From NCBI GenBank assembly GCA_948099385.1, contig CANUEZ040000165.1, forward strand, positions 4,414,501 through 4,478,500: a stretch of DNA of 64,000 nt. Direction: 5' to 3'. The notes beneath the pieces are model-generated. The model did no database searches, had not been told where the DNA came from, and saw nothing but the letters and a program-made list of their open reading frames with translations. This document shows positions 28,166 to 42,370 of this stretch, one piece after another; position 1 is the stretch's first letter, and each line of letters begins with the position of its first letter. The stretch is from Fasciola hepatica (taxonomy: Eukaryota > Platyhelminthes > Trematoda > Plagiorchiida > Fasciolidae). Made by a program: the position numbers and the translations under genes.

Positions 28166-28423
28166 GGTGGACTACTGCTTCTCGTGGAACACATCCGTCC
28201 TGAGAGAAGAATAAATCAAGTGCTGAACTTCTTGATTCAACCTTTATGGTTCTGGCTTTTTGCCGGTTGTCGACTTTCCCGTGAACCACATTTGTTGATT
28301 CAAACAAAATCAGAATTCAGTCAATCGTGGGAGGTGTTGTACTGCCAAGCGAGCAATGTGCCAAATGTGTCACGTTGGCACCCAGTCAATCGCGTTGTGG
28401 CTTTGGCCGCTCGTAGACGATGA
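28166..28423 (+). CDS. METTL7 (TMT1)-like methyltransferase, terminal exon 3A
   Basis: This exon encodes residues 193-277 plus TGA, in phase 0 after acceptor ATATTTCAG. It opens with GGLLLLVEHIRPE, completing the K-P-G-G block of motif VI. Then follow FLIQPLWFWLFAGCRLSREP, matching the C-terminal lid region of METTL7 proteins, and SEFSQSWEVLY. Splicing of exon 2 to this exon keeps the frame. It has the same length as exon 3B and about 84% amino-acid identity to it (14 of 85 residues differ). No canonical AATAAA was seen within 1 kb; a TATAAA variant lies near 28717. It could be the constitutive or an alternative last exon; only transcript data can tell. Confidence 0.87.
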   Translation, partial: GGLLLLVEHIRPERRINQVLNFLIQPLWFWLFAGCRLSREPHLLIQTKSEFSQSWEVLYCQASNVPNVSRWHPVNRVVALAARRR

Positions 28424-28730
28424 TAACATCCATCATCACTAGAGCATAACACAAGCTACTCGATGCGGACTTCGTTCGGTTCAGAAAATACCCTGTTCCC
28501 CTATTTCAATCTATTGGACACTCTTCACTTATACCCGTACTAATTCACAAAATCAAGCCTCCTTCATGGGTATATCTCAATTCAGTTGGGGAAATCTATT
28601 TGACAGTGGTCTCTCAAATATCCTCGTGACTTTGCCCAGTCGAGTTGAGTATTGTTATTCTGCACTTTTTTCTTGTCACCTATTTTTTACAATATGATTG
28701 TTCCGTTCATTTTTTGTATAAAGATTAGAC

Positions 28731-28745
28731 AGAGAGAGAGAGAAA
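28731..28745. repeat. Short (GA)n run
   Basis: GAGAGAGAGAGA in the 3' flank of exon 3A, absent from the corresponding position in block B. Confidence 0.8.
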
Positions 28746-29365
28746 AAGTGTTAGGAGAAGGATGAGTGGGACAACCGGTGACTCACTCTGTAAATCACGC
28801 ACGGTAGAACATGTTACAAGCGATACTTTAGTGATCACTTCATTCAGCTATCATGTTTCAGTCCGGTGCTCTCGTTTGGCTTCCTCTTTCACAGAGTCGT
28901 CCAGTCGATAATAAGGTAAATTGGATCATGAAAAAGAAATGATCAGAAAAAAAATCGTAAGTGCTAATGAATGAGACGAGAAAATCGTCTGGATGCAAGA
29001 CCTTCACCGACCAGGGTACTTGGAGATATCATACAAAATCTCTAACCATCCGCGAACCACAAACCGGAAACCCCACACGTCCTGTTCAGCAGCCAAGCCC
29101 ACTAGTTATGGTCTTTTGCAGTTTCGCTATGTCAAAAACGAGCCACATCGTCTCATCCGCCAAGCACTACCTGCCTTGGAAAACTATGTACAATGTTAGT
29201 CGTCTGCCTGCTGGCACGTTCAACGTACGTCCCAATTACTGACTTGCCCAGGTCAGGCCTTTGTTCTGGACTACTAATCTTTGGTTCCAAACAGCTCTTT
29301 GCTTTACCTCAGCACTGCAGAGTGGTCAGTACGCTGCCGATCAACGATCTCACATTTTGCTACAC

Positions 29366-39019: not shown

Positions 39020-39700
39020 TCATGGCCTCCAAGTACAGTCATCCATACCTTGTCTTGCTTCTCTTTGAACTAAGACACTGGGCGCGCAGCTATAATATTT
39101 CCTGGGAGTTTGTTCTAGTCGTTGATAGCTCCAACTACGAACGGCTGGTTTCTGATTCGTATCTCTGTTCGCACCATCTTTCTTGCCGGTGCATAGCCCT
39201 TTCCTCACAACTCGAATTCGACTTCTTTCTTCTGTAAACCCCTTTAGTATTTTATATACCTCTGAGATCACTTATTCTTTCTCTTTCTAGGAACAACAAG
39301 ACTAATTATTCCAGCCTTTATTTATAGCTCAGATCCCTGTGTTTTTCAAACCATCGCTGCCGTAGCTTTTCGATAGCCCCGATTTCCCTCATCATACGTA
39401 GCCTCGACGCTTGAGCGCAGGATTCCAGACGTGGTCTCTTGAGAGCCTTAGGTTTCCTGTAGCTGACAACCCTGTATAGTTACAGTAGAGCTCTACAGGC
39501 ATGCTGCGCAATTTTCTGACACCGGAAGCTCGGTTTGAAGTCAGCGATCATCTTCACCTCCAGATATGGAGCTTCTGTGGTCTGGGTTAATGATTTCCGG
39601 TTATCCGGTGGGCCCATGTAGGGTTGGGCCATGGTTCTTCCCCTTTATTGAGACGTATAGGCTGTGTACTAAAAAACCGACAGTGTTTTCCCATGAGCCT
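39020..39700 (-). mobile_element. CR1-type LINE RT C-terminal fragment
   Basis: The minus strand reads TQTTEAPYLEVKMIADFKPS, then CQKIAQHACRALL, YRVVSYRKPKALKRPRLESC and REIGAIEKLRQRWFEKHRDL, then VISEVYKILKGF. These are the thumb and C-terminal blocks of CR1-type RTs, different from the RTE and Jockey-like families elsewhere in the window. The catalytic core is not recognisable upstream. Confidence 0.6.
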
Positions 39701-40614
39701 ACTATCAAACGCAAACTTGCTAGTAAACCGCACGATAAATCAGTATTCTAAAAGTGCGTCTGTATTCTCTTCGCCTTTTTCCGTTGAGCACCCATATGCT
39801 GGACACATCTGTTTCTGTCAGAATCAGTAGTGACCGAAACCGCCTGTGATGAATTATACGTATTCATATTCGACCGTTGAATAAATTGTCTTTCAAGCTT
39901 CAGACAAATCTATCATGATAACCAGAGTCACGTGATTTCAACTTCCCAGAGGATAGCACACAGCCGGCGTAATCCATAACAAGTACCAGAATTTTACATC
40001 CCTAAAATTTATTTTGTATGATGTAAGAATATCAGAAATAAAAAAACCCGACGAAAAAAATTTTCATCGTAATTTTGACAACACCTACAATCAGTGGGAC
40101 TGCCCAGTGATTAGTCTTTGGGATTCACAATCTATAAGTTCCGGTTGAAAAAGCAGCAAACATGCTCCATTGGTGGTTCCTAACAAAACAGATGAAACCA
40201 CTGTTCAGTGACTGTGCTCCCATTGATTAAAGCAAAGACGAGTTAGACGTCAATACTGCTCAATAAATCACTTCAGAAAGGTGAACAGGGAGCTAGAGAA
40301 GAATGGCTCACAGTCTTATCTTTCCTTGGATATGGAACTTGGCGGATGCCAAACGTCCATTGCATCAGGGTTTCATGTTCGAATCTCACCGTCTCTGGCC
40401 AACTTCTCCATTCTTCATGAGGACTTCAATGGCCGTCCTAATCTCTCCCGTAGTAAAAGGGAGCTGTTGTGATATGATAAACAATAGAAGAAACATTTCA
40501 TTCTAAAACATTCACTGAGTTCGTTCATGAGTTCCGTCTGAACTGGAAATTTCGCAGCCTGGCAATAAGACGTCAGTGCTGAGTCCATCATTTGTTAGCT
40601 TTATCGACTTATAT
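39701..40614. other. Unassigned stretch before exon 3B
   Basis: About 900 bp; no supported feature. Confidence 0.45.
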
Positions 40615-42370
40615 GATTTTTCCACTGTATACCGGTTGAATGTATTTCAGGGTGGACTGCTACTTTTCGTGGAACATATTCGTCCTGAGAACAGAATAGC
40701 ACAAGCGCTGGGCTTCCTGATTCAACCTTTATGGTTGTGGATTTCTGCTGGTTGTCGACTTTTCCGTGAACCACATTTGTTGATTCAAACAAAATCAGAA
40801 TTCAGTCAATCGTGGGAGGTGTTGTACTGCAAAGTGAGCAATGTGCCAAATGTGTCACGCTGGAGCCCAGGCAGACGCGTTGTGGCTTTGGCCGCTCGTA
40901 GACGATGATAACATCCATCATCACTAGAGCGTAACGCAAGCTACTCGGGCTTCGTTCGGCTATGGAAATGCCCTGGTCCCTTATCCGGATCTATTTGACG
41001 CGATATGCTTTCCCGACGTCGCAAAATCAAGCCTTCCTCATGGGCATATCCCGATTCAGCTGGATAAACCTATTTGACAGTGGTCTTCCAAAGATTCTCG
41101 TGATTTTGCTCAGTCAAGTTGAGCACTGTTATCCTTTATCTTTTTTTCTCTTCTTCTTGCCATCCATTTTTCCTAATATGGTTGTTCCGTTCATTTTTTG
41201 TACGAAGATAGAAATATGGTCTAAAACAGTCGAGCAAGCTAGTGTATATCAGTGAAAAAGAGAAACCCTTTGTGCCTTACGATCACCTATGGTAAAAATC
41301 ATGGAGTGATTTGTCGTAAAAAGAACATTCTAGAAGAATGAGTAATACAAACAGTCACTAGCTCATTAAATCATGTACGACAAGGCATGGTACAGGCGAT
41401 ACTAATGTGATCACCCTATTCAACCGTCATTTTTCAGTCCGGTGCTCTCATTTTGGTTCCTATCTTACAGAGTCACGCAGTCGCTAATCAAATGAATCGG
41501 ATCTTAAAAAAGAAATTTATAAGCGGGAGTGAATAAGGCGAATAAATTGTCTGGATACAAGTTCTTCACTGACCAGGTTGATTTGAGAAATGGTGAAACA
41601 CATCGCAAAAATTGCTACAGCGTTTTTAATTTATCTAGAAACCTGGAAGCTTACTGTACGAATCATTGAGCAGTGGGCTCACCCCCGTATCCTATTTGGT
41701 GTTTTTATGACAGATCCTATTTACAATCTCCGCTCTCACGGCTCCTATCGCACCAGCAACTTTCAATGAGGAACAGAAAAGTCTCAGCTGGGGATAACAT
41801 ATTCATAATTACATAACAAGACATGGTATCACATTGCAAATGTGCCCAAGTTACGAAATATTATCTTGTTTACCACATGCTGTTCGAAACCGGCGAAAGC
41901 ATTTTGGTTAGGGCAGTTTTGACTACGATTAAGCAAATTCTGATTTTATTCGCGTGTTGACAGTGCTAGGAGCTCTGTGCAACCTCAAAGAAACGAGATG
42001 GATAAAGTGCAGCTTATGTTTGGATCGCTCACATGATAAACTGTGAGGTCAACAGTTTTGATCAGGAATTCGGAGATGGACGATTTCTGGGACTGTCTGA
42101 TCTGCCTGGAATCTTACACAAAATGGGGGTGATTACGGGGTGCAATAGTTATGCGAATCAACTCACTCCGGACCATCTAAGCACAACTGTAGCCACATCG
42201 CGTGTGGTGAACAGAAATTAGTACGGCAGTGTGTGGTCTAAGTCCGAACCGAATATCAGAAACTAAAATAAGTGAAGCAGAAGTTGGTGTGTGAGGAAGC
42301 CATAACAAAAGTTTGCAGACTTTGGGCAATCCACAAAATAGAATGTCTCGGTTCAGTGAAGATAAACCAG
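40615..42370 (+). repeat. Duplicated block B (exon 3B and 3' flank)
   Basis: Homologous to 28130-29985. The exon and first 650 bp of flank align well; similarity returns at 42270-42370. A scrap of RTE sequence (ATTGCTACAGCG, about 41612) lies inside this copy only. No (TA)n array is present here. Confidence 0.85.
40651..40908 (+). CDS. METTL7 (TMT1)-like methyltransferase, terminal exon 3B
   Basis: This is the second intact version of the last exon: 258 nt, phase 0, acceptor TGTATTTCAG, TGA stop. It begins GGLLLFVEHIRPENR and keeps the C-terminal lid block QPLWLWISAGCRLFREP. Compared with 3A, 27 of 258 bases differ (7 silent, 20 amino-acid changing; 14 residues). Codons from CGT-GAA-CCA to TAC-TGC (66 nt) are identical, and differences cluster on either side. 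A canonical AATAAA lies at 41541-41546, about 635 nt after the stop. Lack of frameshifts or stops argues that it is used or was duplicated recently. No second copies of exons 1 or 2 were found, so it is not a whole-gene duplicate within this window. Confidence 0.82.
   Translation, partial: GGLLLFVEHIRPENRIAQALGFLIQPLWLWISAGCRLFREPHLLIQTKSEFSQSWEVLYCKVSNVPNVSRWSPGRRVVALAARRR

What the first reader, a model, noticed from the sequence alone, without database searches (positions are those of the whole stretch)
28166..40908. Duplicated, both-intact last exon of a METTL7-like methyltransferase
Exons 3A and 3B have identical length, phase, acceptor context and stop, and either completes the motif K-P-G-G with exon 2. 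This predicts two protein isoforms differing only in the C-terminal lid region that in METTL7-type enzymes lies near the substrate pocket. No extra exon 1 or 2 was found, so alternative last-exon use is the simplest model.
Basis: partly seen in the sequence, partly recalled or inferred. Interest (0 to 1): 0.85.

Follow-up and report, generated by a model that had tools for sequence, protein, structure and literature searches.

The report
Duplicated last exon in fluke methyltransferase
A liver-fluke gene for a small methyltransferase carries two intact, splice-ready copies of its last exon and may make two protein versions, but no RNA evidence was available and the arrangement is a known kind in other animals.

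Summary
The window lies in a Fasciola-like genome of 1.50 Gb. A METTL7-like gene has exon 1 at 2244-2447, exon 2 at 19454-19825 and two last exons, 28166-28423 (3A) and 40651-40908 (3B). Both are 258 nt, phase 0, follow ATTTCAG and end in CGATGA; either gives K-P-G-G with exon 2. They share 231/258 nt and 71/85 residues.

The duplicate reaches about 1.5 kb past the stop but only 27 nt upstream. A genome-wide exon 3 search finds just these two copies below E 0.69. No other exon 1 or 2 was found in the window or within 100 kb on each side; the genome-wide exon 2 search did not complete.

Alternative last-exon use is the best model, but 'both intact' is weak evidence. dN/dS is 0.79, and a dead copy with 13 changes would pass the same checks about 7% of the time. 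In favour, both copies keep the 12 residues invariant in four outgroup rows. The 3' part of the exon is unusually alike, as after gene conversion. No transcript was seen. The kind is known.

The parts
2244..2447 (+). exon 1, coding, 68 aa, N-terminal hydrophobic stretch; donor GTGAGT
   Evidence: F. hepatica P0001 is 99% identical over exons 1-2
19454..19825 (+). exon 2, 124 aa, SAM-binding core; donor GTAAGT after 19825
   Evidence: Methyltransf_23 and Methyltransf_11 over cut-off in the spliced product
28166..28423 (+). last exon 3A, 85 aa + TGA
40651..40908 (+). last exon 3B, 85 aa + TGA
28139..29984 (+). duplicated segment around 3A (27 nt of intron, exon, about 1.5 kb of 3' flank alike in blocks)
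40624..42369 (+). duplicated segment around 3B
28279..28460 (+). low-divergence tract (10/182 differences against 3B) crossing the stop codon; gene-conversion-like; its left border was chosen after seeing the data
41365..41546 (+). ATTAAA (41365) and AATAAA (41541) downstream of 3B; downstream of 3A neither occurs until 31205; may be chance

Best explanation
A segment holding the last exon, its 3' splice site and about 1.5 kb of 3' flank was duplicated within the gene, after the split from the lineage of P0002. The gene now has two competing terminal exons. The exon 2 donor at 19825 splices either to 28166 (8.3 kb intron, transcript ends after 3A) or, when 3A is skipped and transcription runs on, to 40651 (20.8 kb intron, transcript ends after 3B). 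This yields two 277-aa methyltransferases with the same SAM-binding core that differ at 14 of 85 C-terminal residues, half of them in or beside the helix after strand 5. Gene conversion has probably kept the 3' part of the two exons alike. Shown: the duplication, the open frames, the splice signals, and no second exon 1 or 2 nearby. Inferred: use of both exons, gene conversion, and any difference in activity.
For: Open frames, equal length, same acceptor heptamer. P0002 has the same exon order and junction. Two exon 3 copies genome-wide, no second exon 1 or 2 found in the window and 200 kb of flanks. The 12 exon 3 columns invariant in four outgroup rows are kept in both copies, and 0 of 14 differences fall there. 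Identity to P0002 is 57/85 for 3A and 59/85 for 3B, about the level of exons 1-2 (roughly 125/194 by subtraction). P0002 agrees with 3A at 3 of the 14 sites, with 3B at 5, with neither at 6. The exon diverges less than its aligned flanks (27/258 against 147/674, p=5e-5).
Against: dN/dS 0.79, not different from 1 (Fisher p 0.47 or 0.81 by rounding); codon-position differences 7/10/10. The differences do not avoid columns conserved in 50 prokaryote-type rows (11 of 14 sites could be scored, P=0.88) and do not favour columns variable in the four outgroup rows (P=0.38). A dead copy with 13 substitutions would have no stop and no indel with P=0.26. A dead 3A is not excluded by the polarised sites (5 of 8 or fewer on 3A has P=0.20 if 3A carried 80% of changes). 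No indels in 258 nt is not unusual (p=0.20). No transcript or protein with either Fasciola tail was seen. 3A has no AATAAA or ATTAAA for 2.8 kb.
Confidence: 0.55

Rival explanations
1. One of the two exons is an unused relic of a partial duplication; the gene makes one protein.
For: dN/dS 0.79. A relic with 13 changes would still lack stops and indels with P=0.26, and about 0.07 if it must also keep the 12 invariant columns (0.12 times 0.59; about 0.16 with 9 changes, 0.03 with 18). No transcripts seen. A dead 3A fits the polarised sites (P=0.20).
Against: Neither copy is clearly the faster one; if 3B carried 80% of the changes, 3 or fewer of 8 would be seen with P=0.01. The invariant columns are kept in both.
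Confidence: 0.37
2. 3B is the tail of a second complete gene whose exons 1-2 lie elsewhere.
For: Whole-gene duplicates of this family occur in Calicophoron daubneyi (P0056, P0057). The genome-wide exon 1 and exon 2 searches did not complete.
Against: No exon 1 or 2 copy found in the window or in 100 kb on each side. Homology stops 27 nt upstream of the exon. A distant copy could not be spliced to 3B in cis.
Confidence: 0.04
3. Assembly artefact: two haplotypes of one locus placed in tandem.
For: Only the general possibility in a repeat-rich genome.
Against: The aligned flanks differ at 19-26% with 6 indels, far above what alleles usually show, and the intron sequence upstream of the two exons is not alike beyond 27 nt.
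Confidence: 0.04

Closest known systems
Tandem duplicated terminal exons chosen one at a time (Drosophila pip; PGRP-LC 3' regions)
   Same: One set of upstream exons joined to one of several homologous last exons that arose by duplication within the gene (PMC9013439, passages seen; pip is given there among UTR examples).
   Different: Two copies only, 12.5 kb apart with repeats between; one-at-a-time use not shown here.
METTL7A/METTL7B (TMT1A/TMT1B) thiol methyltransferases
   Same: A relative in Calicophoron bears the name Methyltransferase-like protein 7A in UniRef (P0057).
   Different: 28 of 50 prokaryote-type rows score higher against that human sequence than the fluke isoform does. SAM motif is GxAxG, with Glu where human TMT1A has Asp98. 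No activity known.
Phosphatidylethanolamine N-methyltransferase of R. thermophilum (PDB 8ys9)
   Same: Top solved structure by fold for the P0002 model and by profile.
   Different: 18-21% identity, TM-score 0.55-0.56 by query length; bacterial.

Membership tests
Tandem terminal-exon duplication with alternative last exons | Two or more homologous last exons, same phase, own acceptor and stop, downstream of one shared donor | tested here: met
Tandem terminal-exon duplication with alternative last exons | Each exon joined to the shared upstream exon in RNA | not testable with these tools
   no RNA reads held; in the rows listed no Fasciola protein has either tail
METTL7/TMT1 | Class I (seven-strand) methyltransferase fold | tested here: met
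   Pfam Methyltransf_23 and Methyltransf_11 over cut-off for both isoforms; the relative P0002 modelled at pLDDT 84 with Foldseek hits to such enzymes; the isoforms themselves were not folded
METTL7/TMT1 | GxGxG SAM motif and Asp98 (human TMT1A; PMC10705543, passages seen) | tested here: not met
   Fasciola and P0002 read EIGAADG and VVAVEP: middle Gly is Ala, Asp is Glu; Calicophoron reads GAGDG and VDP. Hence 'METTL7-like' only
METTL7/TMT1 | Closer to METTL7 than to other class I methyltransferases | tested here: inconclusive
   E 2e-19 to a recalled human METTL7A, but 28 of 50 prokaryote-type rows score higher against it; UniRef name of P0057
METTL7/TMT1 | Thiol methyltransferase activity, membrane association | not testable with these tools
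   an N-terminal helix 3-67 is predicted in P0002; activity untested

The most novel reading that the evidence does not exclude
Flukes of the Fasciola lineage make two substrate-distinct versions of one methyltransferase by choosing between two last exons, while gene conversion keeps the C-terminal strands alike and the helix coded by the 5' part of the exon diverges (9 of 14 changes in codons 1-38).
Probability: 0.22. Interest if true: 0.5.

Novelty: new member of a known kind. Interest (0 to 1): 0.33.

Why it matters
If both exons are used, one fluke gene gives two methyltransferases from one upstream exon set, a simple test case for how a duplicated terminal exon is kept and diverges. Whatever the outcome, the F. 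hepatica database protein P0001 appears wrong at its C-terminus and lacks the last exon. If only one exon is used, this is an ordinary relic duplication.

Tried and rejected
Second exon 1 or 2: none found in the window or in 20 stretches of 10 kb, 100 kb on each side (one match at E 0.29 taken as chance). The whole-genome Methyltransf_11 search (4 matches from 12 scored candidates) did not list the window's own exon 2, so it cannot rule out another copy; its four loci gave no tblastn match at E<=0.1 to isoform A or P0055. Separate translation of 3A or 3B, for example after trans-splicing, was set aside: neither holds an in-frame ATG. Columns conserved in prokaryote-type rows and diversity of outgroup columns gave no sign of constraint. 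P0056/P0057 of Calicophoron looked at first like tail isoforms but differ along their whole length. NCBIfam: P0002 matched 6 families, each below its cut-off, and P0001 none (the isoforms were not scanned there). Rfam: no match at gathering scores. PDB by single sequence: none at E<=0.001. Papers: METTL7 with trematode, and METTL7A with Fasciola, gave no papers in the held library. The poly(A) hexamers found only after 3B were not used as evidence, as such hexamers are common. In my first notebook entry I wrote 72/85 identical residues; the right count is 71/85.

Full report
What is there. The window is part of a Fasciola-like fluke genome. Exons 1-2 give a protein 99% identical, over 69% of the query, to F. 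hepatica D915_008365 (P0001). The held assembly has 1.50 Gb in 656 contigs, with the window at C165:4414501-4478500. The exact species is not settled. The gene has exon 1 2244-2447 (donor GTGAGT), exon 2 19454-19825 (acceptor TTTCTAG, donor GTAAGT) and two candidate last exons, 28166-28423 and 40651-40908. Both last exons are 258 nt with TGA, phase 0, preceded by ATTTCAG, and either makes K-P-G-G with exon 2. Each spliced product is 277 aa. The two exons share 231/258 nt and 71/85 residues.

Gene model check. P0002, a 280-aa protein from a 1126-nt contig of unnamed source, taken to be a fluke by its similarity, aligns nearly end to end with the predicted product (182/279 identical with 3A, 184/279 with 3B) across both junctions. 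This supports the three-exon model and shows one spliced tail in a relative. The F. hepatica entry P0001 instead reads through the exon 2 donor into the intron and stops.

Extent and copy number. The two copies are alike over 27 nt before the exon, over the exon, and in collinear blocks after it up to 29984 / 42369, with unaligned stretches between. A sensitive comparison of the upstream sequence (19826-28165 against 30001-40650) found one match, 63% identical at 24734-24884, inside a dispersed repeat. Genome-wide, exon 3 protein gave 4 matches from 5 scored candidates: these two exons, and two at E 0.699 each with a stop. For exons 1 and 2 no second copy was found in the window (next best E 0.37) or in 200 kb of flanks (one match at E 0.29). 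The genome-wide searches with exon 1 and exon 2 did not complete, and the Methyltransf_11 genome search did not even list this gene. A distant stray copy is therefore not excluded, but it could not be joined to 3B in cis.

Is it selected? Exon divergence is 27/258 against 147/674 in the aligned flanks (p=5e-5); indels are 0 in 258 against 6 in 674 (p=0.20). Within the exon dN/dS is 0.79 (19.5 of 194.7 N sites, 7.5 of 60.3 S sites) and codon-position differences are 7/10/10, so the low divergence is not of the usual coding kind. The differences are uneven: 24/140 in 28139-28278 against 10/182 in 28279-28460 (p=9e-4, with a border chosen after seeing the data). The two longest identical runs are 67 and 55 nt, the second crossing the stop codon (P=2e-4 for their sum, P=0.007 for the longest). 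That is what gene conversion would leave; an RNA-level constraint is possible too.

Could one copy be dead? Random substitution of one copy (13 changes) leaves no stop in 0.43-0.49 and no stop with no indel in 0.26. No stop with no change at the 12 outgroup-invariant columns comes in 0.12; times 0.59 for no indel this is about 0.07, or about 0.16 with 9 changes and 0.03 with 18, products made by hand. 27 random changes give 14 or fewer residue changes with P=0.06. Both copies keep the 12 columns invariant in P0002, Paragonimus westermani P0055 and Calicophoron daubneyi P0056 and P0057. They are equally near to P0002 (57 and 59 of 85), and P0002 sides with 3A at 3 sites, 3B at 5, neither at 6. 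Over the four outgroup rows the 3A residue occurs at 6 of the 14 sites and the 3B residue at 7 (counted). A dead 3B carrying 80% of changes is unlikely (P=0.01); a dead 3A is not excluded (P=0.20). Two tests for placement of the differences showed no constraint (P=0.88; P=0.38). The case for two working tails is therefore moderate.

What the difference could do. In the model of P0002 (pLDDT 84) exon 3 makes most of strand 191-202, helix 208-224, helix 234-239 and strands 244-249 and 269-276. Of 14 differences, 1 lies in the first strand (199), 7 at 207-225, 1 at 231 and 5 at 254-268. The segment after strand 5 often lies on the substrate side in such enzymes (recalled), but no pocket distance was measured, so the 'lid' remains a guess. 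No row named METTL7 is among the best 60 of 88 profile matches shown from the PDB or the 50 Foldseek rows shown of 1807; the nearest is 8ys9.

Known context. Tandem duplicated terminal exons chosen one at a time are known, for example Drosophila pip (PMC9013439, passages seen; given among UTR examples). Human METTL7A/B are thiol methyltransferases (PMC11514484 and PMC10705543, passages seen). LINE insertion into introns is reported for F. gigantica (PMC8519440, passages seen), which fits the long repeat-bearing introns here. Against a human METTL7A sequence from memory the fluke isoform scores E 2e-19, but 28 of 50 prokaryote-type rows score higher, and its SAM motif departs from GxGxG, so I call it METTL7-like and no more. 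The finding is a new member of a known kind, with use of both exons unproven.

Noticed in passing
19826-19891: The F. hepatica database protein (P0001) ends by reading through the exon 2 donor into the intron, so its C-terminus (VSPDQPQY...) is probably an annotation error and the last exon is missing.
   Followed up: yes
19454-19570: The SAM motif is GxAxG (EIGAADG) in Fasciola and P0002 but GxGxG in Calicophoron; the acidic residue after strand 2 is Glu, not Asp.
   Followed up: partly
24269-26403 and 61476-63609: Inverted pair of about 2.1 kb, 97.4% identical, 35 kb apart; looks like a young dispersed repeat.
   Followed up: no
43630-45294 (-) and 709-1878 (+): Stop-to-stop frames of 554 and 389 aa with a reverse transcriptase domain RVT_1; probably LINE-type elements. 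The other 8 of 10 frames scanned gave no Pfam family.
   Followed up: partly
34891-35091: Pure (TA)n array of 201 bp between 3A and 3B; shorter ones at 3135, 10933 and 29366.
   Followed up: no
   Followed up: partly
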